Part shown: positions 7,648-63,619 of the stretch, piece by piece
Layout: the number at the start of each line of letters is the position of its first letter
Numbering within the stretch: position 1 is the stretch's first letter
Source of the DNA: Natronorubrum halalkaliphilum
GTDB taxonomy: Archaea > Halobacteriota > Halobacteria > Halobacteriales > Natrialbaceae
DNA: 64,000 nt
Direction of reading: 5' to 3'
Assembly: GCF_009834785.1 (NCBI RefSeq)
Contig: NZ_WUYX01000015.1
Coordinates: 1-64,000, forward strand
Program-made: the position numbers and the translations under genes
Notes under the pieces: generated by a model
Database searches by the model: none
What the model was told of the DNA's origin: nothing
What the model saw: only the letters and a program-made list of their open reading frames with translations

Positions 7648-7734
7648 TACGGATTGCTGTAACTAGTTACCGCCGGTCACCAGAGCGGGATCGGCGATCG
7701 GCGATCGGCGGTAATTGACTACAGTAAACCGTAT
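7647..7734. repeat. Palindromic interspersed repeat, copy A
   Basis: An 88-bp imperfect palindrome. The left arm reads ATACGGATTGCTGTAACTAG and the right arm, read in reverse complement, starts ATACGGTTTACTGTAGTCAA. The interior is GC-rich with GATCGGC units. The same ends recur near 8479, 17236, 47374 and 54737. The copy lies against the zinc-ribbon gene and overlaps the 3' end of the HAD reading frame, supplying its stop codon. It may be a MITE or a folded RNA terminator. Confidence 0.8.
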
Positions 7735-42845: not shown

Positions 42846-44051
42846 TCACGACGAGCGGCCGCTGAACGCAACCGGCGTATCCTCGAGCGCTCGTATCGCC
42901 AGCCAGCAGTTGGTCAGCGGGTGGTAGCCGGGCTCGACCGCGGGCCCGTGGTTCGGTCCGTCCCGCTCGTGATCGCGCGCGAGGCGTGCGTACCAGTTGC
43001 CGTATCGCGGATTGATCAGGTGCTCGTGAGCGTACGTCCAGAGCCGGTCGTACCACTCGAGGTAGTCAGGATCCGTCCGGCCCAACAACGCGCTCGCACC
43101 GATCCCTTCGGTGTGGACCCAGCCGTACTTGTCGGGAACGATCGGCTCGCCGTCGCCTTTGACTGTGTAGTAACAGCCGCCGTACTCGTCGTCCCAGCCG
43201 AGGTCGACGGCGGCGTCGAACAGGTCGTACGCGCGCTCGAGCAACCACTGTTCGGATCGATGGTCGGCGAGCAACGCCAGGAGCTTCGCCCACTCGGCGT
43301 GGTGTCCGGGCTGGTAACCCGGCGGCCGGAACTGGTGGCGCGGACTGTCCTTGTTGTACGACAGCTCCGGCTCCCAGGACTCGGTGTAGTGCTCCCAAAG
43401 GAGGCCGTCCGTCGCGCTCGTCACCCCGCGAGTAAACCGATCCGCGACCGTGTACGCTCGCTCGAGATACCGCCGTTCGCCCGTGGCTTCGTACGTCGCG
43501 ATCAGCGCCTCGCAGGCGTGCATATTGGCGTTCTGGCCGCGGTAGGACGATAGCTCCCAGTCAGCCGTCGCCTGGTCGGCGTAGAGTCCGCTGCCGGGCT
43601 CCCAGAATCGCTCCTCGAGGACCCGAAACGCTCGATCGAGTTCGTCGCGTGCGCCCGAAATCCCCGCTTGCAGCGCTCGAGCAGCGGCCAGCAGGACGAA
43701 CGCGTGGCCGTAGCAGTAGCGCGTCCAGTCGGTGGTCGTCCGCCCCTCGAGCAGCCAGTCGTACCCCTCGCGTTCGTCGTCCCAGTGGACGGTCGAGAGG
43801 AATCGCAGCCCGTGTTCAGCCGCGTACGCACACCAGTGTGGGCCGTCCGCGATCACGCCCAGACTGAAGTTGTGAACGCCTCTCGCCGTCGCGACGAGAT
43901 GTTTGGTCCGGGCGTCGTAGACGTGGCCGTCGCGCTCGTCGAGCTGTGCGACGTAGCCGCCGACGGACGTGTCGATACAAGCAGGGTAGTAGAAGTTCAG
44001 CACGTCCCTGAACTGGTGGCGAAGGGCCGCTCGCGTCCGATAGATGGTCAC
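42846..44051 (-). CDS. AGE (N-acylglucosamine 2-epimerase) family sugar epimerase/isomerase
   Basis: A 401-aa alpha/alpha-barrel enzyme. Family segments are visible: FNFYYPACIDTSVGGYVAQL, TKHLVATARGVHNFSL, GQNANMHACEALIATYEAT with active-site His, RPPGYQPGHHAEWAKLL with two candidate catalytic His, and GIGASALL. Relatives interconvert GlcNAc/ManNAc, glucose/mannose or cellobiose. The exact sugar is not decided. Single gene. Confidence 0.9.
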   Translation of the reverse strand: MTIYRTRAALRHQFRDVLNFYYPACIDTSVGGYVAQLDERDGHVYDARTKHLVATARGVHNFSLGVIADGPHWCAYAAEHGLRFLSTVHWDDEREGYDWLLEGRTTTDWTRYCYGHAFVLLAAARALQAGISGARDELDRAFRVLEERFWEPGSGLYADQATADWELSSYRGQNANMHACEALIATYEATGERRYLERAYTVADRFTRGVTSATDGLLWEHYTESWEPELSYNKDSPRHQFRPPGYQPGHHAEWAKLLALLADHRSEQWLLERAYDLFDAAVDLGWDDEYGGCYYTVKGDGEPIVPDKYGWVHTEGIGASALLGRTDPDYLEWYDRLWTYAHEHLINPRYGNWYARLARDHERDGPNHGPAVEPGYHPLTNCWLAIRALEDTPVAFSGRSS

Positions 44052-47373: not shown

Positions 47374-47454
47374 ATACGGATTGCTGTAACTATGTATCGC
47401 CGATCGCCGACCCCGTTCTGGTGATCGGCGGTAATTGACTACAGTAAACCGTAT
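47374..47454. repeat. Palindromic interspersed repeat, copy B
   Basis: An 81-bp element with left arm ATACGGATTGCTGTAACTA and right arm ending TGACTACAGTAAACCGTAT, nearly identical to the ends of copy A. Its interior matches the interior of copy A only when reverse-complemented. The flank TCAGAGC matches copies A and D. Confidence 0.8.
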
Positions 47455-50146: not shown

Positions 50147-52072
50147 ATGGAGTATCCACCCCTGCGCGACTACGGTATCATCGGCAACGACGACCGCTGT
50201 GCGCTCGTCAGCCGATACGGATCGATCGACTGGTGTTGTTTCCCCCACCTCGAGTCGCCGAGCGTTTTCGCCCGAATCCTCGACGCCGACCGGGGCGGTC
50301 ACTTCTCCGTGCGGCCGGCCGAACCACACGAGTCGAGTCACTGCTACGCCGACCGAACGAACGTCCTCGAGACGACATTTGAGACTGACGACGGACAGGC
50401 CACGGTAACCGACTTCATGCCGATCCGGAACGACGGAATGCCGGACGACGAGCGGTTCCAGCAGGCGATCTATCGCCGTCTCGAGTGCGATCGGGGCTCG
50501 ATGGACATGACGGTCGAGTTCGAACCGGGATTCGACTACGCCCGCAAGGAAGCGACGCTCGAGTCGACTGCTGACGGCGTCGTCGCCACGAGCGGCGACG
50601 GGAGCCACGAGACCGGGGCACAGGCCACGTACAACGAAGCCGCCGCCGGCGGCGAGCGACTCCACCTGTTCGGCGACCTCGAGTTCGGCATCGACGACAC
50701 GGCGGGGGCGGCGACAGGAACGGTCTCGCTCACGGCCGACGACGACTGCTGGGTCGGCGTCCAGTACGGCGGCCGGGAGCCGATGGCGTCGATCGATCCT
50801 CAGGAGACCCTCGACGAGACGAAACACTACTGGCGGGAGTGGCTCGGTTCTCGGGACGATATTCCCGAGTCGATGCCCGAGCGCTGGCACGAAATGGTGG
50901 TCCGCTCGGAACTCCTGTTGAAGCTGTTGATCCACCACGAGACGGGGGCGATTCCGGCCGCGCCGACGACCTCGATCCCCGAGGCGATCGGCGAGCCGCG
51001 GACCTGGGACTACCGGTACAACTGGATTCGCGACGCGAAGTTCACCGTTCAGGCGCTCCACGATACGGGCCACCGACAGGAGGCCAGGGAGTACTTCGAC
51101 TGGTTCGCCGACATCGCCCACACCGATCCCGCGGAAATCCAGCCGTTGTACGGGCTCCACGGCGAGGAGGACATCGACGAACACACCCTCGAGCATCTTT
51201 CGGGGTATCGCGATACCGATCCGGTCCGCATCGGCAACGCGGCCGCGCCACAGAAGCAACTCGACGCGTACGGGACGATCGTCCAGGCGATCTACGAGAC
51301 GATCCGGTTCGACGCCGGAACGCCGATCGACGACGACGACTGGGCTGCGATCTGTGACATCGTCGACTACGTCTGTGCTCACTGGGAGGAGCGCGACGCC
51401 GGGATCTGGGAGTTCCGAGACGAACGGCGACACTTCCTGCACTCGAAACTGCTGTGCTGGGTCGCCCTCGACCGCGGAATCGCGCTCGCGACCGAAAACG
51501 AATTCGAGGCACCCATCGAAAAATGGCGCGACAATCGCGAGGCCCTCCGCGAGGAAATCGAGGAACGCGGCTACAGCGAGGAGGCTGGGAGCTTCGTACA
51601 GCACTTCGAGACCGACGAGGCCCTCGACGCGACGGCCCTCCTGATCCCGATTTACGAGTTCCTGCCGCCCGAAGACGAGCGCGTACAGTCGACGATCGAC
51701 GCCGTGCTCGATCGGCTGACCACGGAGGACGGGCTCGTCGTCCGGTTCGTCGACACCGACATCCGCCGCGACGAGGAGAAGGCGTTCCTACTCTGTTCGT
51801 TCTGGCTGATCGACGCCCTCATCCTCTCGAATCGCCTCGAGCGTGCACGGGAGTACTTCGAGAACGTGCTCGACTACGCGAGTCCGCTGGGGCTATACTC
51901 CGAGAAGGTCGATCCCGAGGATGGCACGCTTCTGGGGAATTTTCCGCAGGCGTTCTCGCATCTCGGTCTGATCAACAGCGTCACGTATCTCGCGCGGGCG
52001 ATCGAGACAGAGGGCGACGTCGAACCGGATGACTTCGATCCGGAAAACATCGAAACGCTGTTCCGACGTTAA
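50147..52072 (+). CDS. GH15 family glucoamylase/trehalase-like glycoside hydrolase
   Basis: A 641-aa exo-acting enzyme of glycoside hydrolase family 15. The N-terminal beta domain starts MEYPPLRDYGIIGNDDRCAL and YGSIDWCCFPHLESPSVFAR. The (alpha/alpha)6 catalytic domain has RTWDYRYNWIRDAKFTVQAL, then DAGIWEFRDERRHFLHSKLL with the likely catalytic Glu, and GSFVQHFETDEALDATALLI. There is no signal peptide, so it acts on imported sugars. Substrate could be trehalose, maltose or isomaltose-type glucosides. It opens the sugar island. Confidence 0.88.
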   Translation: MEYPPLRDYGIIGNDDRCALVSRYGSIDWCCFPHLESPSVFARILDADRGGHFSVRPAEPHESSHCYADRTNVLETTFETDDGQATVTDFMPIRNDGMPDDERFQQAIYRRLECDRGSMDMTVEFEPGFDYARKEATLESTADGVVATSGDGSHETGAQATYNEAAAGGERLHLFGDLEFGIDDTAGAATGTVSLTADDDCWVGVQYGGREPMASIDPQETLDETKHYWREWLGSRDDIPESMPERWHEMVVRSELLLKLLIHHETGAIPAAPTTSIPEAIGEPRTWDYRYNWIRDAKFTVQALHDTGHRQEAREYFDWFADIAHTDPAEIQPLYGLHGEEDIDEHTLEHLSGYRDTDPVRIGNAAAPQKQLDAYGTIVQAIYETIRFDAGTPIDDDDWAAICDIVDYVCAHWEERDAGIWEFRDERRHFLHSKLLCWVALDRGIALATENEFEAPIEKWRDNREALREEIEERGYSEEAGSFVQHFETDEALDATALLIPIYEFLPPEDERVQSTIDAVLDRLTTEDGLVVRFVDTDIRRDEEKAFLLCSFWLIDALILSNRLERAREYFENVLDYASPLGLYSEKVDPEDGTLLGNFPQAFSHLGLINSVTYLARAIETEGDVEPDDFDPENIETLFRR

Positions 52073-52118
52073 GAGGTTCTGAGGGGCGCTGAGTCGATTG
52101 ATATCGATTTCGCCGTAC

Positions 52119-53351
52119 TTAATCGAAGAGTTCCTCGCCCTCGACCATCTGTTCCTCGACGACGTCCATATCCAGCGTGACGCCCAGTCCGGGTTCCTCC
52201 GGGATCTGGATGTAGCCGTCCTCGATGACGTCTTCCTCGACCAGATCGGCCCACCAGTCGAGTTCGTAGGAGTGGTACTCGACGGCCAGCGAGTTCGAGA
52301 TCGCCGCGCCGACGTGGGCGCTGGCCATCGTCGCGACCGGCGAGGAAACGTTGTGCATCGCGACGGGGACGTAGTAGAGATCCGCCAGATCCGCGATCCG
52401 CCGGGTCTCGCGCATCCCGCCGACCTTCGGCATGTCGGGCGCGATGATGTCGACGGCCTGCTCCTCGAGCAATCGCCGCTGGCCGTGCGTGCGATAGACG
52501 TTCTCGCCGGCGGTGATCGCCGTCGTCGTCGACTGGGTCACCTCCCGCTGGACGTCGTGGTTCTCCGGCGGCACTGGGTCCTCGAGCCACCAGACGTCGT
52601 ACTCCTCGAGCCGCTTGGCGAGTCGCTTCGCGCTGCCGCCCGAGAACGTCCAGTGGCAGTCGAAGGCGACGTCGGCTCGCGACCCGACGCGTTCGGTGAT
52701 CGCCTCGACGATCGACGCCTTGTGCTCGATCTCTGGGCCGCGCAGGTGGCGGTTCGCGCGGTCTTTCTCGTGGCCCGAGGGCACGTCCAGATCGAACTTC
52801 AGCGCGTCGTACCCTAACTCCTCGACGACGCGCTCGGCCTCGTCAGCGCAGGCGATCGGATCGGCCTCTTCCTCGGTGTGACAGTCACAGTAGACCCGTA
52901 CCTCGTCGCGGTACTTCCCGCCCAGCAACTGGTAGGCCGGGACCTCGAGAATCTTTCCTGCCAGATCGTGGAGGGCGACTTCGATGCCCGCGATGGCGGT
53001 GACGGTGACGCCGCCGATCGAGCCCTCACCGGACATCTTCTGGACGAGATGCTCCGTGAGCCGGTCGATGTCGAGCGGGTTCTCCCCCCGGAGAAACGGC
53101 TTCATGCGCTCGATCAGTTCGGGCGCACCTGCCCCCCAGTAGGCCTCTCCGGTACCGACGATGCCCGCGTCCGTGTAGATCCGCACCAGCGTCCACGGGA
53201 AGTTCCCGTCGATCATCGTCGTCTGAATGTCGGTGATCTCGACGTCGCGACCGCCCCCGCGCTCGCGCGTGACGTTCATCGTTTCCGCCGAGAGGTCCCG
53301 CATCGTGTACTCGGCGTTCGGATCGTGCAAGCGCGTGTAATCAACTCCCAT
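52119..53351 (-). CDS. gnaD: D-gluconate/sugar-acid dehydratase (enolase superfamily)
   Basis: A 410-aa mandelate racemase/muconate-type enzyme that dehydrates gluconate to 2-keto-3-deoxygluconate in the semi-phosphorylative Entner-Doudoroff route. The C-terminal barrel shows metal ligands in VAFDCHWTF (Asp), WWLEDPVPPEN (Glu) and TAGENVYRT (Glu). The conserved MHNVSSPVATMASAHVG segment carries the catalytic His. Context with glucose dehydrogenase and KDPG aldolase supports the gluconate assignment. A TTAC-N10-GTAA palindrome overlaps its promoter (53363-53380). Confidence 0.85.
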   Translation of the reverse strand: MGVDYTRLHDPNAEYTMRDLSAETMNVTRERGGGRDVEITDIQTTMIDGNFPWTLVRIYTDAGIVGTGEAYWGAGAPELIERMKPFLRGENPLDIDRLTEHLVQKMSGEGSIGGVTVTAIAGIEVALHDLAGKILEVPAYQLLGGKYRDEVRVYCDCHTEEEADPIACADEAERVVEELGYDALKFDLDVPSGHEKDRANRHLRGPEIEHKASIVEAITERVGSRADVAFDCHWTFSGGSAKRLAKRLEEYDVWWLEDPVPPENHDVQREVTQSTTTAITAGENVYRTHGQRRLLEEQAVDIIAPDMPKVGGMRETRRIADLADLYYVPVAMHNVSSPVATMASAHVGAAISNSLAVEYHSYELDWWADLVEEDVIEDGYIQIPEEPGLGVTLDMDVVEEQMVEGEELFD

Positions 53352-53362
53352 GGCCCAAATTC

Positions 53363-53380
53363 TTACTTCGAAAATAGTAA
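53363..53380. promoter_or_regulatory. Candidate TrmB binding site at the gluconate dehydratase promoter
   Basis: TTAC-N10-GTAA, with inner TACT-N8-AGTA, overlapping an A/T-rich TATA zone about 27 nt before the gnaD ATG. The pattern resembles the TACT-N7-8-GAGTA motif reported for haloarchaeal TrmB. A position over TATA would fit repression. A related palindrome sits before the glucose dehydrogenase gene. Confidence 0.55.
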
Positions 53381-53475
53381 TAGTTTCTATCTTCTGGTCG
53401 TCGCCGCGGCCGCGGACGGCTCGGCGAAAAAAGCAACCGGCGGTCGAGTTCGGCGGTAACTGGGCCGAACCGCGA

Positions 53476-54543
53476 TCAGACGCCGCCGAATTCGACGGCC
53501 GTCTTTACGACGTCGTCATCGGAATCGAAGGCGGACTGGTACTCCTCGAGGCCGTAGACGCCGGTCACGAGGTCGTCGGTAAACCACGTCGGAAGCTGCG
53601 AGAGGCTGTCGATCGCGGATTCGAAGTGGCCGCGATGGGAGTTGACGGTTCCCACGAGGGCCTTGTTGTGAAGGACGAGTTCACGGTGGAGGCGACCGCC
53701 GTCGACTTCGAACTCCCAGGGCTCGGGCACGCCGAGGAGGACGCCGACGCCGTTGGGTGCGAGCGCGTCGACCGTTTCGAAGGCGTGTTTCGCGTGGCCG
53801 GTCGCCTCGTAGACGAGATCGGCGGGTTCGTGGACGTCGGGAATCTCGGGAACGGGCGTCTCGCGCGAGTCGATGTACGTCGAACCGAGCGCTTCGATGA
53901 GGTCGATCGTCGGGTGCGGGCGGTCGCGTCGACCGAGGCAGTAGGTCCGGTCGATGTCCAGGACCGTCTCGAACATCGCGAGCGTGATCAGTCCGAGCGA
54001 GCCGTTTCCGAGCACGACGGCCGATTCGGGTTCCCAGTCGAACGCAGAGCGGGAGGCGACGGCGTGCTCGAGTGCCTTTTCGGTGATGCTGATCGGCTCG
54101 ACGAGGAAGCCGAGCGGTGCGAGTCGCTCGGGAATCGGCACGAGATACTCCGCCGGGCTCGTGAAGTACTCCGCCATGAAGCCGTGCGCGCCGACGATAC
54201 CGCGTTCGACGTACTTCCCTTCCGGAGCCATGTCGGGCTCGCCGCGCTCGAAGTACTCGTTGCCGCCGTTGGGCGCGCGCCGGACTGTCGGCACGACGTA
54301 CTGGCCCTCCTCGAGGTCGGTCCCGTTCGCGTCTTCGACGACGCCGACGGCCTCGTGGCCGAGGACGAGTCGGTCCGCGCCGTCGGGCAGGTTCCCGTGG
54401 TGGCCCGCGATGACTTCGTGATCGGTCCCGTCAACGCCGACGCGAAGCGTGCGGACGAGCGCTTCGCCGGGCGCTGGATCGGGACGGGGCGTTTCGACGA
54501 GGACGGGTTCCCCGGCCCCGGGTTCGACAGCGATCGCTTTCAT
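53476..54543 (-). CDS. gdh: Glucose 1-dehydrogenase (zinc-dependent MDR family)
   Basis: A 355-aa NAD(P)+-dependent enzyme that oxidises glucose to gluconolactone, first step of the Entner-Doudoroff route. Catalytic zinc/active-site region: RVGVDGTDHEVIAGHHGNLP and LVLGHEAVGVVEDA; the cofactor loop is VVLGNGSLGLI. ERGIVGAHGFMAEYF and VNSHRGHFESAI match haloarchaeal glucose dehydrogenases. ATG 54543 with leaderless promoter. It is directly upstream of the dehydratase on the same strand, 125 nt apart. Confidence 0.9.
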   Translation of the reverse strand: MKAIAVEPGAGEPVLVETPRPDPAPGEALVRTLRVGVDGTDHEVIAGHHGNLPDGADRLVLGHEAVGVVEDANGTDLEEGQYVVPTVRRAPNGGNEYFERGEPDMAPEGKYVERGIVGAHGFMAEYFTSPAEYLVPIPERLAPLGFLVEPISITEKALEHAVASRSAFDWEPESAVVLGNGSLGLITLAMFETVLDIDRTYCLGRRDRPHPTIDLIEALGSTYIDSRETPVPEIPDVHEPADLVYEATGHAKHAFETVDALAPNGVGVLLGVPEPWEFEVDGGRLHRELVLHNKALVGTVNSHRGHFESAIDSLSQLPTWFTDDLVTGVYGLEEYQSAFDSDDDVVKTAVEFGGV

Positions 54544-54566
54544 AGTTCAACCTATGGGCGCCAGCC

Positions 54567-54574
54567 AATAAAAG
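54567..54574 (-). promoter_or_regulatory. TATA box for glucose dehydrogenase
   Basis: On the minus strand CTTTTATT lies about 27 nt before the gdh ATG, indicating a leaderless transcript. The TrmB-like palindrome lies immediately upstream. Confidence 0.5.
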
Positions 54575-54575
54575 T

Positions 54576-54593
54576 TTACCTCATTCGTAGTAA
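54576..54593. promoter_or_regulatory. Candidate TrmB binding site upstream of glucose dehydrogenase
   Basis: TTAC-N10-GTAA; on the minus strand it reads TACTACGAATGAGGTA, close to TACT-N7-8-GAGTA. It ends next to the TATA box on its upstream side, the position associated with activation. Confidence 0.55.
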
Positions 54594-54736
54594 ATCATTT
54601 TGAACGGCGGCTGGTCAGCGCCAGTAACTGTTGGATTCGAAAGACATCGTCGGGGTCGGCGGCGCTATCGCTCCTGGGAGAAGCGATCCAGCACACCGCT
54701 GTTCAAAGAGACGAACGAACCGAAAGTGACCGATTC

Positions 54737-54813
54737 ATACGGACTGCTGTACGTCAGCGCCGGAGCGGCCGCGAACGGTCTTGCGGTCTCCGGCAGACAG
54801 TTACAACAGATCG
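54737..54813. repeat. Palindromic interspersed repeat, copy C
   Basis: Left arm ATACGGACTGCTGTACGTC and right arm ACAGTTACAACAGATCGT form an imperfect inverted repeat and match copy D best. It ends two bases before the stop codon of the KDPG/KDG aldolase gene, so it forms the immediate 3' end of that transcript. Confidence 0.7.
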
Positions 54814-54815
54814 TT

Positions 54816-55463
54816 TCAGTCGGTACGTGCGGACTCGACGGCCTCGACGAACGCTGCGGCGGACTCCTCGACCTGCGTCATATCGTCGTCAGCGATCGCG
54901 TCGTAATCGATGAGCGCGCTGCCAGCGCCGACGGCGACGGCACCGGCGTCGAAGAATTCGGCGGCGTTGTCGGCCGAGACCCCGCCGGTCGGGATCACGT
55001 CGACCTCGCCGAGCGGCCCTCGAATCGCGCCGATGTGGCCCGGTCCGACGGTCGAGGCGGGAAACAGTTTGAGCACGTCCGCACCGTTCTCCATCGCGGT
55101 GACGGCTTCCGTCGGCGTCATGATGCCCGGAGCCGAGAGCACGCCCTGTCGATTACAAAGTGTGATCGTCTCGACGTCGGTGCTCGGCGAAACGACGAAC
55201 TCTGCCCCTGCGTCGATCACCGACTGTGCCGTCGGCGCGTCGAGGACGGTCCCCGCGCCGACGACCGCGTCCGGCAGTTCGCGGTCGACGGCGGCGATCT
55301 GTTCGCTCGCGCGGGTCCCGTCCGCCGTAATCTCGAGCGCGTCGACGCCCGCGTCGTAGATCGCTCGAGCGACGGGGACGATTCGGTCCTCGTCGATCCC
55401 GCGGAGAACCGCTACGACGCCGCTCTCGACGATCCGATCCCTGATCGCGCGGCTGTCAGTCAT
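54816..55463 (-). CDS. KDPG/KDG aldolase (2-dehydro-3-deoxy-phosphogluconate aldolase)
   Basis: A 215-aa class I aldolase that splits 2-keto-3-deoxy-(6-phospho)gluconate to pyruvate and glyceraldehyde (3-phosphate). The Schiff-base Lys is in ADVLKLFPASTVGPGHIGAI; VDVIPTGGVSADNAAEFFD and VGAGSALIDYD are conserved. Length is normal for the bacterial-type enzyme. No KDG kinase is in the window. It follows the TrmB gene on the same strand. Confidence 0.9.
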   Translation of the reverse strand: MTDSRAIRDRIVESGVVAVLRGIDEDRIVPVARAIYDAGVDALEITADGTRASEQIAAVDRELPDAVVGAGTVLDAPTAQSVIDAGAEFVVSPSTDVETITLCNRQGVLSAPGIMTPTEAVTAMENGADVLKLFPASTVGPGHIGAIRGPLGEVDVIPTGGVSADNAAEFFDAGAVAVGAGSALIDYDAIADDDMTQVEESAAAFVEAVESARTD

Positions 55464-55566
55464 CGGCGATACCTCCGGTCGGGGGGCGAGCCCAGTCCAT
55501 CACATCGGGACGTTTGCTCCCACACCTCAAGAGATTTACTCACGCACGAAAAACAGTCGCGTCGTT

Positions 55567-56625
55567 CTACTCTTCGAGCGGACTGACGGTCACCGACTCC
55601 GCCTCGAAGTCCTCGAGGAACGCGCCGGTGCCACCGATAGTGTAGCGCTCGCCGTCGACAGCGAGTTCGATCGCGTTCTCGATCGGCACCGTCGACGAGA
55701 CCGGGCGGACGAGACTCTGTCGAACGGCGACGACCTCGCCGGAGAGCGTCGACGGAAGGTCGCGTTCGCCGACCGGCGACCCGGTAACGGTCGCTTCGAT
55801 CCGGCTGTCGGTGGCGCGGTGAAGGGCGATCTGGAAGACGGCGTTGCGAAACCCTTCGAACGTCCGCGGGAGGTCGCCGGCTGCAGTGACGTACCGCTCC
55901 TCGGCGGTCGGCCAGTAGTTCGCGAGGAACGACCCGACGAAGACCGGTGCGAGCTGCGGCTGGGAGATCGAAATGGCTCTCGTATCGCTCGTCGAACTCG
56001 TCAGCATCTGGCTGGGTGCGAGCAGTCCGTGCTGGCTGTCGACCGTGAGCATCGTGGGAACGAGTGCATCCCACGTGCGAACGGTGCTCGCCGTCCCCGC
56101 CAGCGACGCGATATCCTGCTCGTCGTCGGTCCCGCCCAACAGGAGCAAGACGAGGACGCCCCGATCGACGGTGTCCTCGAGCGTCGACCGGATCTGCGGG
56201 AGCACCTCGGCGGGCAGCGAGAGCGTGACTTCCGTCTCGGCGCCGGCGAGCAGCCCCTCGATCCGCTTGAGGACCGTCTGGCGGGCCTTGATTACCTCGA
56301 ACTCTTCGCCCGTGCGCTCGGTCGTCGTGTACCGCGATTGGAGCTCCGGCTCGATCGCTTCGACGCTTTCCGTGAGTCGGCCGACGACCGTCTCGGGGTC
56401 GACGGGGCGAATCACCGTCGGCACGGAGTGGTCGTCGACCTCGACGAAGCCACGCGTCTCGAGTTCCTCGCTGATGCTGTAGACGTACCGCTTGGAGACG
56501 TCCGCAGCGTCCGCGATGGTGCTGGCTTTCGACTCGCCCTGATCGAGTATCGCGAGATAGGTGTCAACCTCCTTCTCCGAGAGGCCGAAGCGTTCGAGCA
56601 GATCGGCAAGATCGTCAGTATCCAT
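55567..56625 (-). CDS. trmB: TrmB family sugar-responsive transcriptional regulator
   Basis: A 352-aa regulator. Residues about 1-70 are a winged helix: LADLLERFGLSEKEVDTYLA, SKASTIADAADVSKRYVYSI. A coiled-coil linker follows, then a C-terminal sugar-binding domain (about 110-352). In Halobacterium TrmB represses gluconeogenesis-type genes and controls sugar genes in response to glucose. Here it lies inside the sugar island, between the aldolase and the second GH15 gene, so it is the obvious regulator of this cluster. Confidence 0.9.
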   Translation of the reverse strand: MDTDDLADLLERFGLSEKEVDTYLAILDQGESKASTIADAADVSKRYVYSISEELETRGFVEVDDHSVPTVIRPVDPETVVGRLTESVEAIEPELQSRYTTTERTGEEFEVIKARQTVLKRIEGLLAGAETEVTLSLPAEVLPQIRSTLEDTVDRGVLVLLLLGGTDDEQDIASLAGTASTVRTWDALVPTMLTVDSQHGLLAPSQMLTSSTSDTRAISISQPQLAPVFVGSFLANYWPTAEERYVTAAGDLPRTFEGFRNAVFQIALHRATDSRIEATVTGSPVGERDLPSTLSGEVVAVRQSLVRPVSSTVPIENAIELAVDGERYTIGGTGAFLEDFEAESVTVSPLEE

Positions 56626-56778
56626 GGTTACTCAGTACCTCACAGATCGGTCGGTTAGTGTAAAAGATTCCCGATGAGACTGTCACGCCGTTCGACGTAC
56701 CGGAGCCGACGGTGACTGCGTTCACGGCAACGAACGGACTTCGCCGCTTGCAGAAAGTAGGAATACATTTTTCAACAA

Positions 56779-56788
56779 AGTTTAATGG
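56779..56788 (+). promoter_or_regulatory. TATA box for the second GH15 gene
   Basis: GTTTAATG lies about 28 nt before the ATG at 56812. This supports 56812 over an in-frame ATG at 56785, which is part of the TATA element itself. Confidence 0.5.
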
Positions 56789-56811
56789 GGGGCGGGCGAA
56801 CTGAGTATACG

Positions 56812-58848
56812 ATGGAATTACACGGCGCCCTCAACGATTTCAAGCGCTCACGGGGCGACTCGCATCGGTTCCCCGGGGAGCGCCGGTCCACGACAGGATT
56901 GTTTTCCGGTCTCGACGACCGACTCGTCCACGTCGCGCCCGACGGTTCGACCACTGACTACTCCTATCCGCTCTCCGGCGTTTCCGGCATCGAACGCTCA
57001 CGGTTCGCGCTCGTCGTCGACGACGAACGACACTGGTTCGACGAGGGCGAACAGCAGTACGTCGACGGAACCGCCGTCGTCGAAACCGTCCATGACGCGG
57101 GCAGCTACACCTGTCGGCAGTACGACCTCACGATCGATCACCGCCACCTGACCCACTTCGTCCTCGAGGACGGGCCGGACGCGGACGCGTCGATCGAGGC
57201 CTGTTTCGGATTCGCACCCGAAGGACGGGCGAATCGAGTCGGCCAACTCTGGCACGACGACGCCGTCGAGGTCCACCACGACAGCGAACGGGACTTCGTC
57301 GCCGCCTCGACCGACCTCTCCGTCTCGGGGCAGGTCCCGGAACGGTTCGAGGAGTTGCTCGCCGCGGAACCCGCGACGTTCCCGCGGCACAGAGACGACG
57401 ACCGGTACGAGGAGGCTCGACTCAGCCCGATCACGAGAGTCGAGTTCGACCTGACGGGATCGACGCCCGCCGGAACCGTCGCGACGCTGCTAACGAAAGG
57501 CGCGGATCGGACCGACGCGTTAAAACGCGTCCGAGACGACGCGCTCGCTCACGACGACCGGGAGTCGATCCTCGAGGCGGGACGGAGTCAGGCTCGGGAT
57601 CGACTCCCCGACGCGGGCGCCGGTCTCGGCGACGAATTCGTGGACTTACGGGCGCTCTGTCTCCTCCGGTCCGCGACTGGCGCGCGAATCGCCGGCCCCG
57701 AGTTCGACCCCTTCTACCGTTACTCCGGCGGCTACGGCTACACCTGGTTCCGCGACGACGCCGAGATCGCCCGATTCCTGCTCGAGACCGATCTGCGCAC
57801 GGAGACCGACCTCGAGGAGTGGCACGCCGCCAGCGCTCGCTTCTACGCCGACACCCAACTCGAAGACGGGACGTGGCCCCACCGCGTCTGGCCGCACAAC
57901 GGTCAACTCGCCCCCGGATGGGCGAACGGGCGGCTCGAGGAGGGTGACTCCGCGGACTACCAGGCCGACCAGACCGCGAGCGTCGCGGCGTTTCTCGCGA
58001 CCTACCTCCGACGGGTCGATCCGAGCGACGAGCGAGTCAACAAGACGCTGACCGCCGCGCTCGAGGGGATCGACGCCACCCTCGAAGCGGACGGCCTCCC
58101 CGGCGACGTCCAGAACGCGTGGGAGAACATGACCGGTCGGTTCACGCACACGGCGGCGACGTTTCTCGAGGCGTACGCCGCGATCGCGCGGGCTCCGGTC
58201 GACGAGGACGTCGCGGCTCACGCGAGCGCACAGGCGGAACGCGTCTACGCGGCGCTGGACGATCTCTGGCTCTCGGAACGCGACTGCTACGCGATGCGAC
58301 TCGAGGACGGCGAACTCGACGAGCGACTCGACGGAAGCACGCTCGCGCTCGCGTCGGCCCACCGAGAGTACGATGCCATCGCGACGGTCGACGACGAACG
58401 ACTCGACCGTCTCGGCAGCCACCTCGAGACGACGCTCGAGGGACTCTATCGGGACCCCGAAGGCCCGATCGAGGGACTGGCGCGCTTCGAGGGCGACCCG
58501 TGGCGGCTCCGGGACCAGACGGAGCCGAAAATCTGGACGGTGACGACGGCGTGGGGTGCCAACGCGGCCGTCGAACTCCGCGACCTGTTTGCCGCGAACG
58601 ACCACCCGCGGGCCGCGGAGTTCGACGACCGCGGACGCGAGCTGCTGGCGCTGGTCGCGCCCGGCGGCCTGCTCCGTCGACCCGGCGGATATCTCCCCGA
58701 GCAACTGTTCGACGACGGCACGCCCGACAGTGCGACCCCGCTCGGGTGGCCACACGCGATCAGACTCGCGACTGCGAGCGCGCTCGAGACCGCTGAACCC
58801 GTCGAGTCGGGCGTCGAAACCGGCGGACGGGCGACCGGTCACGAGTAG
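56812..58848 (+). CDS. GH15 family glucoamylase-like glycoside hydrolase
   Basis: A 678-aa protein. Residues about 1-280 form a beta-sandwich supersandwich domain (MELHGALNDFKRSRGD; SYTCRQYDLTIDHRHLTHFV), and about 290-660 the (alpha/alpha)6 catalytic domain: GGYGYTWFRDDAEIARFLLE, GTWPHRVWPHNGQL, and DVQNAWENMTGRFTHTAATF, with a Glu in the WEN motif as a candidate acid. There is no signal peptide, so it acts in the cytoplasm on imported oligosaccharide. It is a distant relative of the GH15 gene at 50147. Confidence 0.87.
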   Translation: MELHGALNDFKRSRGDSHRFPGERRSTTGLFSGLDDRLVHVAPDGSTTDYSYPLSGVSGIERSRFALVVDDERHWFDEGEQQYVDGTAVVETVHDAGSYTCRQYDLTIDHRHLTHFVLEDGPDADASIEACFGFAPEGRANRVGQLWHDDAVEVHHDSERDFVAASTDLSVSGQVPERFEELLAAEPATFPRHRDDDRYEEARLSPITRVEFDLTGSTPAGTVATLLTKGADRTDALKRVRDDALAHDDRESILEAGRSQARDRLPDAGAGLGDEFVDLRALCLLRSATGARIAGPEFDPFYRYSGGYGYTWFRDDAEIARFLLETDLRTETDLEEWHAASARFYADTQLEDGTWPHRVWPHNGQLAPGWANGRLEEGDSADYQADQTASVAAFLATYLRRVDPSDERVNKTLTAALEGIDATLEADGLPGDVQNAWENMTGRFTHTAATFLEAYAAIARAPVDEDVAAHASAQAERVYAALDDLWLSERDCYAMRLEDGELDERLDGSTLALASAHREYDAIATVDDERLDRLGSHLETTLEGLYRDPEGPIEGLARFEGDPWRLRDQTEPKIWTVTTAWGANAAVELRDLFAANDHPRAAEFDDRGRELLALVAPGGLLRRPGGYLPEQLFDDGTPDSATPLGWPHAIRLATASALETAEPVESGVETGGRATGHE

Positions 58849-59049
58849 CGGTGGTTACGCGCGCTCACGAGTCGGTGGTCGCGCCGAAACAGCGTCTCCG
58901 AGAACAGTATACGCTCCTCTTTTTCGCCGTGAAACGCGCTAGTTCGAGTGGCAAACCGCGTATCAGCCCGCAAAAACAGCGTTCGAGATCGGCGGTCGGC
59001 ACGACGTCACGTACGCTCGGGGCCTCGGCGGTCCGAAACGACGGTCGAA

Positions 59050-60189
59050 CTACCGTGCGGTCATTTCCGGCGGTTCGTTCTCGGAGCCGAAGACGTCGGC
59101 CCCGGTTTCGGAATCGAAGAGGTGGAGATCGGATTCCGAGAACGTCAGCCTCACCTGTTCGCCGGGCTCGGGGCTGACCGTCGATTCGACGCGGGCGATA
59201 AACTCCGGCGCGATATCGATGTGGAGGTAGTTGTCGGAGCCGACCGGCTCGACGACTTCGACGGTGCCCTCGATCGTATTGTCGGCCGCCCCGCTCGCAA
59301 CGGAGACGTTTTCGGGGCGAATGCCGAGCGTGTAGCGATCCGCGGTGAGGCTGGCCGCGTGCTGGTCGGCGTACGTTGCCGAGAGGTCGAACTGGAATCG
59401 GCCGTCGGGACCGAGCAACTGAATCCGGTCGCCGTCGCGCCGTACGTCGACGTCCACGAAGTTCATCGAGGGCGATCCGACGAAGCCGGCGACGAACTGG
59501 TTGACCGGATTCTCGTAGACCTCGGTCGGCGGCCCGGTCTGTTGGAGGACCCCGTGGTTGAGGATAACCATCCGGTCGCCCATCGTCATCGCCTCTTCTT
59601 GATCGTGCGTGACGTAGACGGCCGTGATCCCGAGTTCGTTCTGGATTCGCTGAATCTCGGCGCGCATCTCCGTACGAAGACTGGCGTCGAGATTGGACAG
59701 CGGTTCGTCGAAGAGGAACAGATCCGGTTCGCGAACGATCGCGCGCCCGAGCGCGACGCGCTGTTTCTGCCCGCCCGAGAGTTCGTCGGGTTTGTCCTCG
59801 AGCAGGTCGCCGATCCCCATCATCTCGGCGGCCTCGACCACGCGCTGTTCGCGCTCGTCCTCCACCATCTCGGTGCTCATTCGGAGCCCGAACTCCATGT
59901 TCTCGAAGACGGTCTTGTGCGGGTAGAGCGCGTAGTTCTGGAACACCATCGCCACGTCTCGGTTTTTCGCGTGAACGTTGGTGACGTCATCGTCACCGAT
60001 TTGGATCGTTCCCGCGGTCGGTCGCTCGAGTCCGGCGAGCATCCGGAGCGTGGTCGTCTTTCCACAGCCGGAGGGACCGACGACCGTGATGAACTCTCCG
60101 TCGTCGATCTCGAGGGAGAGATCGTCAACCGCGACGACTGAGCCGGTATCGTACTCCTTTCGAAGCGATTCGATCGTGACACGTGCCAT
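59050..60189 (-). CDS. Sugar ABC transporter ATP-binding protein (MalK/UgpC type)
   Basis: A 379-aa ATPase that drives sugar import. Walker A is VGPSGCGKTTTLRML, signature LSGGQKQRVALG, Walker B LFLFDEPLSNLDA, switch His in YVTHDQEEAMTMGD. The C-terminal about 140 residues are the TOBE regulatory domain of MalK-type ATPases. ATG 60189 is preferred over a longer frame because of the promoter spacing. It is divergent from the rest of the transporter and shares the intergenic region with the binding-protein gene. Confidence 0.93.
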   Translation of the reverse strand: MARVTIESLRKEYDTGSVVAVDDLSLEIDDGEFITVVGPSGCGKTTTLRMLAGLERPTAGTIQIGDDDVTNVHAKNRDVAMVFQNYALYPHKTVFENMEFGLRMSTEMVEDEREQRVVEAAEMMGIGDLLEDKPDELSGGQKQRVALGRAIVREPDLFLFDEPLSNLDASLRTEMRAEIQRIQNELGITAVYVTHDQEEAMTMGDRMVILNHGVLQQTGPPTEVYENPVNQFVAGFVGSPSMNFVDVDVRRDGDRIQLLGPDGRFQFDLSATYADQHAASLTADRYTLGIRPENVSVASGAADNTIEGTVEVVEPVGSDNYLHIDIAPEFIARVESTVSPEPGEQVRLTFSESDLHLFDSETGADVFGSENEPPEMTAR

Positions 60190-60213
60190 TGTACACCCCG
60201 TTTGGCGAGGGGA

Positions 60214-60222
60214 CGTAAAATC
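60214..60222 (-). promoter_or_regulatory. TATA box for the ABC ATPase gene
   Basis: On the minus strand GATTTTAC is about 28 nt before the ATG, fitting leaderless transcription. A perfect GTAATATTAC palindrome lies a little upstream, near 60247, and could be a regulator site. Confidence 0.45.
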
Positions 60223-60468
60223 CTTTCTCAAAACCCACGATCTAAGAAGTAATATTACATCCATAATTGAGAGCGATCGGTTCAGTGCGTTTTCAGTTCG
60301 GGGGACGGTTTCATCCTCGCGACGGCTCGCCTCTGTTCGTTCGCGAACAGATGGCCACAACACCGATAACCCCTCGTGAACGCGGTCATCACTGGTCACT
60401 CGGGTACATCGACTCCGCGTTTCCAAAGTACTAAATATGTGAAGATATGATTCATCACTGTTTGACCT

Positions 60469-61674
60469 ATGGCAACCAACCGCAGATCAGTTCTCAAGGC
60501 AGTAGGGGGAATGAGCGCAGCACTGGCAATCGCCGGCTGTCTCGGCGACGATGACGACGGTGCAAACCTCTGGCACGACTTCGAAGACGCGGAAACCGAC
60601 ACCTTCGAATCGCACCTCGAGGCGTTCAACGAGGATCGCGACCAGGCGCTGACGGCGGACGGCGTCTCCGAACTGGAAGAACAGCTCGAGACCGCGCTCG
60701 CTGCCGACCGCGGTCCCCAGTCGTTCGCGTGGGCCCACGACTGGATCGGTCGCTACCACGACCAGGAGTTCGTTACCGACGCCGGCGACGACCTCGAGGT
60801 CGACCTCGAGTCGACGTACACCGAGGTCGCCGCGGAAGCCGTGCAGTACGAGGGCGCGGTGTACGGCCTGCCGTACGGTGCGGAGACGGTAACGTTGATG
60901 TACAACGAGGATCTGGTCGACTCCCCGCCGGAGACGGTCTCCGAGATGGAGTCGATCATGGAAGACCACCACGATCCGGAAAACGGCCAGTACGGTCTCT
61001 CGTACCCGTCGGTCGACCCGTACTTCGTCAGCGCCTGGGTACACGCCTACGGCGGCTACTACTACGACGAGGAGTCGGGCGAACTCGGTCTCGAGAACGA
61101 CGAGACGATCGAAGGGGTCGAACTGCTCGCGGATTCGTTCTACCCGTACGTTCCGGAGGACCCGGATTACGAATCCCAGGTGGCCGTGTTCAACGACGGC
61201 AACGCGCCGTTTGCGATCAACGGCCCGTGGCAGGTCGGCGGCTTCCGCGACGGCGACTTCGACGTGACGCTGGCACCGCTCCCGACCGTCGACGGCGGCG
61301 AGCCGCGTCCGTACACGGGCGTGCAGATGTGGTACTTCACGTCGAGACTCGGGGAGGCGGAGGACGACGTCTCCGACGCGGTCGTCGACTGGACGGAGTA
61401 CCACACGACCAACGAGGACGCCATCCTCACCAACGCACAGGACTACGGGATGGTCCCGGTTCATCAGGACTACGTCGAAAGCGACGAACTCGGCGAGGAC
61501 GTCGAGATGTTCGCCCAGACGATCGACTCGGGGATCCCGCTGCCGACCGATCCGCGAATGAATCAGGTTTGGGATCCCGTCGAAGACGCGCTCGAGCGCG
61601 TGTTCATCGGCGACGAAGAGCCGCGTGAAGCGTTCGAAGAGGCTGCAGAGCAGGTTCGCGACGCCTGGGACTAA
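60469..61674 (+). CDS. Extracellular sugar-binding lipoprotein of the ABC transporter
   Basis: A 401-aa MalE-like solute-binding protein. The N-terminus has a twin-arginine stretch (TNRRSVLKAVGGMSAALA) followed by a lipobox with Cys (IAGCLGDDDDG), so it is probably Tat-exported and lipid-anchored. Family blocks follow: WHDFEDAETDTFESHLEAFN, YGLPYGAETVTLMYNEDL, and FAINGPWQVGGFRDGDFDV. It captures a maltose-, trehalose- or maltodextrin-like sugar. The permease genes follow directly (24 nt). Confidence 0.92.
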   Translation: MATNRRSVLKAVGGMSAALAIAGCLGDDDDGANLWHDFEDAETDTFESHLEAFNEDRDQALTADGVSELEEQLETALAADRGPQSFAWAHDWIGRYHDQEFVTDAGDDLEVDLESTYTEVAAEAVQYEGAVYGLPYGAETVTLMYNEDLVDSPPETVSEMESIMEDHHDPENGQYGLSYPSVDPYFVSAWVHAYGGYYYDEESGELGLENDETIEGVELLADSFYPYVPEDPDYESQVAVFNDGNAPFAINGPWQVGGFRDGDFDVTLAPLPTVDGGEPRPYTGVQMWYFTSRLGEAEDDVSDAVVDWTEYHTTNEDAILTNAQDYGMVPVHQDYVESDELGEDVEMFAQTIDSGIPLPTDPRMNQVWDPVEDALERVFIGDEEPREAFEEAAEQVRDAWD

Positions 61675-61697
61675 CCGACGGCTACTACGATTGATCT

Positions 61698-62729
61698 ATG
61701 GTTTCGCTACCCCGCAACCGATTACCGCTGTCCGCCGAGCGGCTGCGTGATCTTCCCTTCGGCTCACGAGACATCGGGCTGTTTCTCGTGTTGCCGGGGC
61801 TGATCCTGTTCTCGGCGTTCATGCTCTACCCGATCGCGTTCCTGATCTACCTGTCGCTGACAGACGCGACACACGCGGGAACCGTCATCGGCGGAGATGC
61901 ATCGCTGGTCGGACTACAAAACTACGTCGAGCTGTTTACCGATCGACTGTTCTGGAACTCGATCGGAATCACCTGGCTGTTCCTCGCAGTGAGCCTCGTC
62001 ATCAAGGTCATCGTCGGGATCGGGATCGCGATGCTGTTCACGCACTCTCACGTGATCGGGAAGCGGTACATGCGAGCGATGATCATCATCCCGATGGGAT
62101 TCCCGCCGATTTTCACGATTACGATCTGGCGAGGAATGTTCAGTAGCGCCCGTTTCGGGCCGTTAAATGAGATGTTAGCCATGTACAACGGTGCCGTTAC
62201 CTGGATCGCCGGCGTCGTCGATAGCGCCGTCTTTTTCATGGCGGTCAGTGCGCCCGAGTTCCTGCTCGTAGATATGCCAGTCGCCTGGCTCAGCGGTCGC
62301 TGGAGCACGTTCTTCGCGTACGTAACGACCGAAGTCTGGCTCGCGTACCCGTTTATGGTGATCATCATCGTGAGCGCGCTTCAGGACGTGCCCGCGGAAC
62401 TTCACGACGCGGCCAAGGTCGACGGCGCGGGCTATCTGTACCGTTTCATCCACGTTACGTTGCCCGCGATCAAGGGCCCGGTCATGTTTGCGTCGATTCT
62501 CACCGCCGCGACGTCGTTCCAGCAGTTCCTCATTCCGTGGATCTTCAACCGCGGCGGGCCGGCGAGACAGAACGAACTGATTCTCGTCTACGGCTACCGT
62601 GAAGCCATCGTCAACCACGAGTACGCGTTCGCCTCCGCGATCATGGTCACCGCAATCGCCTTCATCGGCGTGTTCATGTGGCTGGCCGTCAAGAAAGGCG
62701 GTCTCGCCGAGGGGGTGGGATCGGAATGA
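61698..62729 (+). CDS. Sugar ABC transporter permease (MalF-type)
   Basis: A 343-aa inner-membrane permease with about six to eight helices. The EAA loop that contacts the ATPase is DAAKVDGAGYLYRFIHVTLP. The first helix is FLVLPGLILFSAFMLYPIAF. Its stop overlaps the next ATG (ATGA). Confidence 0.92.
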   Translation: MVSLPRNRLPLSAERLRDLPFGSRDIGLFLVLPGLILFSAFMLYPIAFLIYLSLTDATHAGTVIGGDASLVGLQNYVELFTDRLFWNSIGITWLFLAVSLVIKVIVGIGIAMLFTHSHVIGKRYMRAMIIIPMGFPPIFTITIWRGMFSSARFGPLNEMLAMYNGAVTWIAGVVDSAVFFMAVSAPEFLLVDMPVAWLSGRWSTFFAYVTTEVWLAYPFMVIIIVSALQDVPAELHDAAKVDGAGYLYRFIHVTLPAIKGPVMFASILTAATSFQQFLIPWIFNRGGPARQNELILVYGYREAIVNHEYAFASAIMVTAIAFIGVFMWLAVKKGGLAEGVGSE

Positions 62730-63619
62730 AACTCATCGACGATATTCGGGCGGTACGGTCCGGTCACAAACGGCCGCAGGAACTCGCAAAGAGCCTGATC
62801 GCGACCGGCAGCGCGGTCGGGTTGCTCGTCGTCCTGTTGTTCCCCGTCTACTGGATGCTCACGGCCTCGCTCTCACAGGGGGTCGGGCTGATGAGCTCCG
62901 ACGGGATCTTCGCCGATCCGAGCACGTACAATCTCGACGCCTACCGGTACGTCCTCATCGAAGACTCGACCTTCAGAGAGGCGCTGCTCAACAGCCTCGT
63001 GGTCGTCTTCGTGACGGTCAGCGTCTCGCTGTCCGTCATCATCCCCGGTGCCTACGCCCTTTCGCGGCGCAGGTTCGCCGGGCGGACGAAGATCCTCTAC
63101 GGCTACGTGTTGTTCACGCAGGTCGGTGCGGGGCTATCGATCGCGACGCTCATCGCCTTGTACGCGCTGTTCGTCAACTTCGGGCTCGACAACAGCCTGC
63201 TCGTGTTGGGACTGTTCTACGCGGGCACGGCCATCCCGTTCAACACGTGGCTGCTGAAGACGTTCATGGACAACATCCCGGTCTCCTACGAGGAGGCCGC
63301 GATGGTCGACGGCGCCAGCCAGTGGCAGGTCATCCGTGAGGTCATCCTGCCGCTCTCGAAGCCGGGAATCGCCGTCGTCCTCGTCTTCACCTTCCTCGCC
63401 GGCTGGAACGAGTTCATCATCGCCCAGACGCTGCTCCAGTCCGAAAACTACACGCTCTCGGTGGAACTCTACTCCCTCGCGACGTCCGGTCGGTACTCGA
63501 CGCCGTGGACCGAGTTCGCCGCGTTCGCGATCCTCTTCGCGACGCCGGTCGCGCTCATCTACTTCTTCGCCCAGAGCTACGTCGAGAGCGGCCTCTCCTT
63601 CGGCGGGATGGAAGGCTGA
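62726..63619 (+). CDS. Sugar ABC transporter permease (MalG-type)
   Basis: A 297-aa permease. The EAA loop is EEAAMVDGASQWQVIREVIL and first helices include GLLVVLLFPVYWMLTASLS. It pairs with the preceding MalF-type permease; the ATG overlaps its stop. It ends the sugar island. Confidence 0.92.
   Translation: MKLIDDIRAVRSGHKRPQELAKSLIATGSAVGLLVVLLFPVYWMLTASLSQGVGLMSSDGIFADPSTYNLDAYRYVLIEDSTFREALLNSLVVVFVTVSVSLSVIIPGAYALSRRRFAGRTKILYGYVLFTQVGAGLSIATLIALYALFVNFGLDNSLLVLGLFYAGTAIPFNTWLLKTFMDNIPVSYEEAAMVDGASQWQVIREVILPLSKPGIAVVLVFTFLAGWNEFIIAQTLLQSENYTLSVELYSLATSGRYSTPWTEFAAFAILFATPVALIYFFAQSYVESGLSFGGMEG

What the first reader, a model, noticed from the sequence alone, without database searches (positions are those of the whole stretch)
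50147..63619. Compact oligosaccharide use island with its own TrmB
Two cytoplasmic GH15 enzymes, glucose dehydrogenase, a gluconate-type dehydratase, a KDPG/KDG aldolase, TrmB, and a complete sugar ABC importer lie in 13.5 kb with no unrelated gene between. This is a full predicted path from an extracellular alpha-glucoside to pyruvate, missing only KDG kinase. Placing intracellular GH15 hydrolases with an importer implies uptake of intact disaccharide or maltodextrin.
Basis: partly seen in the sequence, partly recalled or inferred. Interest (0 to 1): 0.6.

Follow-up and report, generated by a model that had tools for sequence, protein, structure and literature searches.

The report
Haloarchaeal maltodextrin uptake-to-pyruvate gene island
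A salt-loving archaeon keeps, side by side, a starch-fragment importer, three enzymes that probably cut such fragments to glucose, and the genome's only genes for three steps of its glucose-burning pathway; this is a regional arrangement of well-known parts, with a conserved switch site that makes its control easy to test.

Summary
The genes are real, at the coordinates given, with no unrelated gene between them. The genome is Natrialbaceae-like (nearest Natronorubrum texcoconense). The island is cut by the window end: just beyond lie the genome's only GH13 gene (MalA-like alpha-amylase) and a second, 90%-identical gluconate-dehydratase gene. With GH15b keeping both catalytic glutamates and a binding protein nearest to Pyrococcus maltodextrin-binding protein, this favours maltodextrin over trehalose or isomaltose; GH15a, related to archaeal trehalases, stays open. 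The 'missing' KDG kinase is at another locus and passes its curated cut-off, so the semi-phosphorylative Entner-Doudoroff path is complete; GDH, the aldolase and both dehydratases of the genome lie here. The local TrmB is not the orthologue of characterised haloarchaeal TrmB (that is on another contig) but a conserved paralogue keeping sugar-site residues, including the maltose-specific Asn. The TrmB site (TACT-N8-AGTA) sits at fixed positions before gdh and gad in most relatives, but not before the maltodextrin genes, suggesting two-tier control. The core trmB-paralogue/GH15/malK/malEFG(+GH13) is widespread in haloarchaea: a new member of a known kind, of moderate interest for its regulation only.

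The parts
50147..52072 (+). GH15a: intracellular GH15 alpha-glucosidase with trehalase-like N-terminal domain; substrate (trehalose or short alpha-glucoside) not resolved; Glu422 and Glu586, the presumed catalytic pair, conserved
   Evidence: Pfam GH15 230 bits, TREH_N 55 bits; NCBIfam TreH1 392 bits, under cut-off 820; E422 and E586 invariant in 8 sequences; no signal peptide seen
52119..53351 (-). D-gluconate dehydratase candidate (enolase superfamily), upstream copy
   Evidence: MR_MLE domains; best PDB match 2QQ6, 258 bits; 84% identical to a Haloferax prahovense homologue; second copy at C25:66514-67785
53364..53379 (-). TrmB-type site TACT-N8-AGTA before gad (28 bases before its start codon)
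   Evidence: the only exact match in the window; same position in most relatives
53476..54543 (-). glucose dehydrogenase, the only strong one in the genome
   Evidence: Glu_dehyd_C 317 bits; 541 bits over full length to solved glucose dehydrogenase 2B5V; only strong match in genome
54577..54592 (-). TrmB-type site TACT-N8-GGTA before gdh (49 bases before its start codon), directly upstream of a TATA-like run
   Evidence: one mismatch to consensus, same position (48-49 bases) in all loci with gdh
54816..55463 (-). KDPG aldolase, the only PF01081 gene in the genome
   Evidence: 146 bits; TIGR01182 eda 186 bits over cut-off 156; sole copy
55567..56625 (-). TrmB-family regulator, a paralogue of haloarchaeal TrmB; candidate maltose sensor
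   Evidence: PF11495 171 bits, PF01978 60 bits; 129 bits vs cut-off 500 for TrmB orthologues; 30% identical to the genome's TrmB orthologue; Asn317 aligns with Asn305, and Gly and Glu with Gly320 and Glu326, of TrmB 3QPH
56754..56786 (+). conserved promoter footprint of GH15b, unlike the TrmB consensus
   Evidence: alignment of 11 Natrialbaceae upstream regions
56812..58848 (+). GH15b: divergent GH15, likely intracellular glucoamylase/maltodextrin glucosidase; start more likely 56812 than 56785
   Evidence: GH15 27 bits, TIGR01577 93 bits; model pLDDT 86; GH15 structures 9JU0, 1LF6, 1UG9 among the five best fold matches; E438 and E630 invariant in 40 relatives
59050..60189 (-). MalK-like ABC ATPase (CUT1 type)
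   Evidence: ABC_tran, OB_MalK, TOBE_2; MalK 364 bits, UgpC subfamily 434 bits
60422..60459 (+). conserved promoter footprint of malE, unlike the TrmB consensus
   Evidence: alignment of 10 upstream regions
60469..61674 (+). maltodextrin-binding lipoprotein (MalE), twin-arginine motif plus lipobox LAIAGC
   Evidence: best PDB match P. furiosus maltodextrin-binding protein 1ELJ, 234 bits; Thermotoga MalE 137 bits; sequence
61698..62729 (+). permease MalF
   Evidence: BPD_transp_1 44 bits; MalF the best NCBIfam match
62726..63619 (+). permease MalG, overlapping the end of malF
   Evidence: BPD_transp_1 58 bits; MalG 119 bits
63620..64000 (.). window ends here; island continues on C25 with malA-like GH13 (64231-66369 -) and second gad (66514-67785 -)

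Best explanation
This is a Natrialbaceae version of the common haloarchaeal maltodextrin locus, joined to the genome's main glucose-catabolism genes. A Tat-exported lipoprotein binds maltodextrin, MalFGK imports it, intracellular GH13 (MalA-like) and GH15b (and perhaps GH15a) cut it to glucose, and glucose is oxidised to gluconate (GDH), dehydrated to KDG (GAD, two copies), phosphorylated by a KDG kinase encoded elsewhere, and split by the KDPG aldolase to pyruvate and glyceraldehyde 3-phosphate. Control is probably in two tiers: the local TrmB paralogue senses maltose or maltodextrin and controls the uptake and hydrolysis genes, while the glucose-sensing TrmB encoded on another contig binds TACT-N8-AGTA before gdh and gad and holds them down when glucose is absent. 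Gene content, conserved order and the conserved sites are shown; substrate, the local regulator's targets and the direction of control are inferred.
For: Gene identities. Conserved order TrmB(-) GH15b(+) MalK(-) MalE-F-G(+) in Natrialbaceae, Haloferax, Haloarcula, Halorussus, Halogranum and others, with GH13 in the cluster in the examples scanned. The only GH13 of the genome adjoins. MalE nearest to P. furiosus maltodextrin-binding protein. GH15b keeps both presumed catalytic glutamates and folds as GH15. Sole KDPG aldolase, sole strong GDH and both close GADs of the genome are here; KDG kinase elsewhere, over its cut-off. TACT-N8-AGTA-like site 48-49 bases before gdh in all 15 loci and 27-29 bases before gad in most, standing out from diverged flanks; 2.3% of random 130-base stretches of the window hold such a site. 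In Haloarcula hispanica ChIP-seq found TrmB at the gdh promoter (PMC10817205). The local TrmB keeps the Gly320/Glu326 equivalents throughout and has Asn at the Asn305 equivalent in 41 of 72 rows, including the Natrialbaceae loci closest to the window; the genome's TrmB orthologue lacks it.
Against: No expression or binding data for this organism. GH15a is closest to archaeal trehalases, so trehalose could be a second substrate. NCBIfam scores for MalE, MalK, MalA and GAD are below the equivalog cut-offs. No site was found for the local regulator. The Asn305 equivalence rests on one remote alignment, and the residue is His in Haloarcula and many Halorubrum.
Confidence: 0.75

Rival explanations
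1. The island is mainly for trehalose: the importer takes up trehalose, GH15a is a trehalase, and the local TrmB senses trehalose, as in the Thermococcus trehalose/maltose operon.
For: GH15a has TREH_N plus GH15 and scores 392 bits against archaeal TreH1; Thermococcales TrmB binds maltose and trehalose (PMC4158304).
Against: GH15a is under the TreH cut-off (392 vs 820) and is not beside the core in most relatives; MalE is nearest to a maltodextrin-binding protein, and no trehalose/maltose-binding protein is named among the 60 best chains; the adjoining GH13 resembles MalA and cyclomaltodextrinases.
Confidence: 0.12
2. One local regulator, the island's TrmB paralogue, controls the whole island and itself binds TACT-N8-AGTA at gdh and gad; the distant TrmB plays no part here.
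For: Physical neighbourhood; the DNA-binding domain is of the same family.
Against: The consensus is that of the TrmB orthologue (PMC4158304) and that orthologue binds gdh in Haloarcula hispanica (PMC10817205); no such site recurs before GH15b, malK, malE or the regulator itself.
Confidence: 0.15
3. The enzymes are one pathway only on paper: gdh, gad and the aldolase serve general glucose breakdown and merely lie next to a maltodextrin locus.
For: In most haloarchaea the core lacks these genes; in Natrialbaceae gad and gdh lie on either side of it or on one side only; they are the only copies in this genome; the TrmB-type sites are at gdh and gad only.
Against: In several Natrialbaceae genera the genes stay adjacent, which suggests selection for co-inheritance.
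Confidence: 0.3

Closest known systems
Thermococcus/Pyrococcus trehalose/maltose operon (malE malF malG treT trmB malK)
   Same: TrmB-family regulator next to a malEFGK-type importer (PMC4158304)
   Different: intracellular GH15 and GH13 hydrolases in place of treT, and Entner-Doudoroff genes attached; the TACT-N3-AGTA site of that operon was not searched for here
Sulfolobus acidocaldarius maltose regulon (malR, malEFGK, amyA, malA)
   Same: TrmB-family regulator, importer, amylase and an alpha-glucosidase in one cluster (PMC4158304)
   Different: GH15 and GH13 of haloarchaeal types; sugar-oxidation genes included
Haloferax volcanii semi-phosphorylative Entner-Doudoroff pathway (GDH, GAD, KDG kinase, KDPG aldolase)
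   Same: same enzyme steps: glucose dehydrogenase, enolase-superfamily dehydratase (84% to a Haloferax homologue), KDG kinase over the haloarchaeal equivalog cut-off
   Different: three of four steps lie beside a maltodextrin locus, with gad in two copies; the aldolase was not compared gene by gene with the H. volcanii enzyme
Haloarcula japonica MalA (intracellular alpha-amylase, GH13_49)
   Same: the adjoining GH13 scores 601 bits against haloarchaeal MalA
   Different: under the equivalog cut-off of 875
Haloarcula hispanica / Halobacterium salinarum TrmB regulon
   Same: TACT-N7-8-(G)AGTA sites; gdh is a bound target in Haloarcula hispanica (PMC10817205)
   Different: the regulator inside this island is a different paralogue

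Membership tests
Semi-phosphorylative Entner-Doudoroff pathway | GDH, gluconate dehydratase, KDG kinase and KDPG aldolase all encoded | tested here: met
   the kinase lies outside the island
Semi-phosphorylative Entner-Doudoroff pathway | dehydratase acts on D-gluconate | not testable with these tools
   enolase superfamily by Pfam; no NCBIfam equivalog cut-off reached
CUT1 maltodextrin ABC importer | binding protein, two permeases, ATPase with OB/TOBE domains | tested here: met
CUT1 maltodextrin ABC importer | binds and transports maltodextrin | not testable with these tools
   nearest solved relative is 1ELJ
Haloarchaeal TrmB (VNG1451C orthologue) | NF047392 score over 500 bits | tested here: not met
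   129 bits for the island's regulator; 610 for the gene on C44
TrmB family with sugar-binding domain | PF01978 plus PF11495, Gly320 and Glu326 equivalents kept | tested here: met
GH15 | GH15 profile and the two conserved glutamates; for GH15b also the fold | tested here: met
   GH15a (by sequence; its structure model was poor); GH15b
Archaeal trehalase TreH1/TreH2 | NCBIfam equivalog cut-off (820/1000 bits) | tested here: not met
   GH15a 392 and 338 bits
Haloarchaeal MalA | NF041321 cut-off 875 bits | tested here: not met
   601 bits

The most novel reading that the evidence does not exclude
The island's TrmB paralogue belongs to an uncharacterised haloarchaeal subfamily of maltose sensors, and Natrialbaceae have joined its regulon physically to that of the glucose-sensing TrmB, so that one locus is read by two related sensors, one for the imported sugar and one for its hydrolysis product.
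Probability: 0.4. Interest if true: 0.45.

Novelty: new member of a known kind. Interest (0 to 1): 0.28.

Why it matters
Maltose and maltodextrin use in haloarchaea has few assigned genes: a glucoamylase gene of Haloferax volcanii (HVO_1711) is listed as an open annotation issue (PMC8305020), and TrmB paralogues with a sugar-binding domain were uncharacterised in haloarchaea apart from TrmB itself (PMC10817205). The conserved locus links a divergent GH15, an importer, a GH13 and a paralogous regulator, and gives precise sites and residues to test.

Tried and rejected
TACT-N7-AGTA gave no more matches than chance in the window. A shared operator for the local regulator in the GH15b and malE promoters was looked for: both show strong but different footprints, and no common palindrome was recognised by eye. 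I first took the local regulator for the H. hispanica paralogue HAH_1557, but in Haloarcula argentinensis the pair about 10 kb apart that fits HAH_1548/HAH_1557 lies on another contig than the local-type regulator, so that was dropped (note 1 in the notebook still holds the older idea). Gene conversion between the two gad copies was considered; the tree is mixed (paired by position in this genome with Natronorubrum and in Natrialba, paired by genome in Halobiforma), so no single history is claimed. GH15a was modelled, but with too low confidence to use (pLDDT 56). PDB sequence search for GH15b gave nothing useful. Recent acquisition: G+C of the island (64.1%) is that of the window (63.8%). Papers that characterise the H. 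volcanii pathway and a further sugar regulator are not held.
Full report
Check of the observation. Reading 50147 to 63619: GH15a (+), enolase-superfamily dehydratase (-), glucose dehydrogenase (-), KDPG/KHG aldolase (-), TrmB-family regulator (-), GH15b (+), MalK (-), binding protein (+), two permeases (+). No unrelated gene lies between them. GH15b more likely starts at 56812, where the relatives start. The binding protein carries a twin-arginine motif and a lipobox; neither GH15 protein, nor the GH13 beyond, shows a signal peptide to the eye, so intracellular hydrolysis is a fair inference.

Beyond the window. The whole genome is held (4.56 Mb, 72 contigs, 99.8% complete). Just past the window end come a GH13 gene, C25:64231-66369 (-), and a second dehydratase gene, C25:66514-67785 (-). 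The GH13 is the only PF00128 gene of the genome; it scores 601 bits against haloarchaeal MalA (cut-off 875) and next best against cyclomaltodextrinase and maltodextrin glucosidase. MalA of Haloarcula japonica is described as an intracellular alpha-amylase and founds GH13_49 (PMC11239784). The second dehydratase is 87.6% identical in DNA and 90% in protein to the first and in the same orientation, so the island is flanked by direct repeats of one gene.

The pathway. Glucose dehydrogenase matches the solved glucose dehydrogenase 2B5V over its whole length with 541 bits and is the only strong member in the genome. The aldolase is the only PF01081 gene and passes the eda cut-off. The two dehydratases are the only close ones in the genome; a Haloferax homologue is 84% identical. 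KDG kinase, said to be missing, is at C64:36543-37418 and passes the haloarchaeal KDG kinase cut-off (541 against 440 bits). The semi-phosphorylative Entner-Doudoroff path is therefore complete, and three of its four steps are encoded only here as far as these families show. That the dehydratase acts on gluconate is inferred.

The sugar. Three things favour maltodextrin: the binding protein is nearest to P. furiosus maltodextrin-binding protein (234 bits; Thermotoga MalE 137); a MalA-like GH13 adjoins; and GH15b, although divergent, keeps the two glutamates that sit in GH15-type motifs (E438 in WEN, E630 in LPEQ; invariant in 40 relatives; the catalytic role is from knowledge of GH15), and its confident model (pLDDT 86) matches dextran dextrinase, bacterial glucoamylase and glucodextranase, all GH15. 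GH15a is different: a trehalase-like N-terminal domain with GH15, E422 and E586 conserved, below the trehalase cut-offs. It may be a trehalase or an alpha-glucosidase; sequence does not decide.

Relatives. A scan of one genome for each of 84,980 species found 125 stretches encoding GH15b relatives, of which 80 were fetched, all in haloarchaea or unnamed archaeal records. The order TrmB(-) GH15b(+) MalK(-) MalE-MalF-MalG(+) recurs in Natrialbaceae, Haloferax, Haloarcula, Halorussus, Haladaptatus, Halogranum and others, while many Halorubrum keep only TrmB and GH15b near each other; GH13 genes lie inside the cluster in Haloferax, Halorubrum, Haloarcula, Natronorubrum, Natrialba and Halobiforma examples. 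The Entner-Doudoroff genes are attached only in Natrialbaceae, on one side or both. So the maltodextrin core is a common haloarchaeal locus, and the island is a family-level extension of it.

Regulation. The local regulator has both TrmB domains but scores 129 bits against the haloarchaeal TrmB model (cut-off 500), while the orthologue is on contig C44 with 610 bits; the two are 30% identical. Halobacterium TrmB recognises TACT-N7-8-GAGTA and responds to glucose (PMC4158304), and in Haloarcula hispanica TrmB binds the gdh promoter (PMC10817205). Here the only exact TACT-N8-AGTA of the window lies 28 bases before gad, and a one-mismatch site 49 bases before gdh. In relatives the gdh site is at 48-49 bases in all 15 loci and the gad site at 27-29 bases in most, while the flanks have diverged; 2.3% of random 130-base stretches of the window hold such a site. 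Exact sites are also about twice as common in the genome as the reversed control pattern (32 against 15). The relatives are not independent, so this is a footprint, not a p-value. No such site recurs before GH15b, malK, malE or the regulator; GH15b and malE show other strong footprints. The gdh site lies just upstream of a TATA-like run and the gad site close to the start, so repression without glucose is the likely effect (inferred).

Sensor. In the alignment to solved TrmB (3QPH) the local regulator keeps Gly320 and Glu326 and has Asn317 opposite Asn305, the residue described as specific for maltose and as not conserved outside hyperthermophiles (PMC10817205). Among 72 aligned rows the position is Asn in 41 and His in 27 (Haloarcula, many Halorubrum), and it is absent in the genome's TrmB orthologue. 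This suggests a maltose sensor but rests on a remote alignment.

Verdict. New member of a known kind, with testable regulatory detail.

Noticed in passing
C25:52119-53351 and C25:66514-67785: Two gluconate-dehydratase-like genes, 87.6% identical in DNA, flank the island as direct repeats; homologous recombination between them could delete the whole island.
   Followed up: partly
L004, within 130 bases upstream of the second dehydratase (C25, above 67752): Inverted pair ATACTGTCGGACAGAA ... TTCTGTCCGACAGTAT, each half resembling TACT-N7-AGTA with one mismatch; the two dehydratase copies have different promoters.
   Followed up: no
G000:C43:144380-146497 (L005:6381-8498): A third GH15 with trehalase-like N-terminal domain whose conserved C-terminal block (GNFPQAFSHLGL) is missing; the frame ends early.
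   Followed up: partly
L085:9983-14542 (Halegenticoccus soli) and L068:13859-16543: In L085 the GH15b relative runs on in one 1519-aa frame into a glucodextranase N domain and a second GH15; in L068 such a gene lies separately in the cluster.
   Followed up: partly
window 7712-7726 and 47432-47446: The same 15 bases TAATTGACTACAGTA occur twice in the window, both outside the main reading frames listed; possibly a shared promoter element.
   Followed up: no
window 42846-44051: N-acylglucosamine 2-epimerase family gene (320 bits) some 6 kb before the island.
   Followed up: no
window 48839 to roughly 49930, minus strand: HtrA/DegP-like serine protease with a twin-arginine signal, next to GH15a; also found near the island in several relatives.
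   Followed up: no
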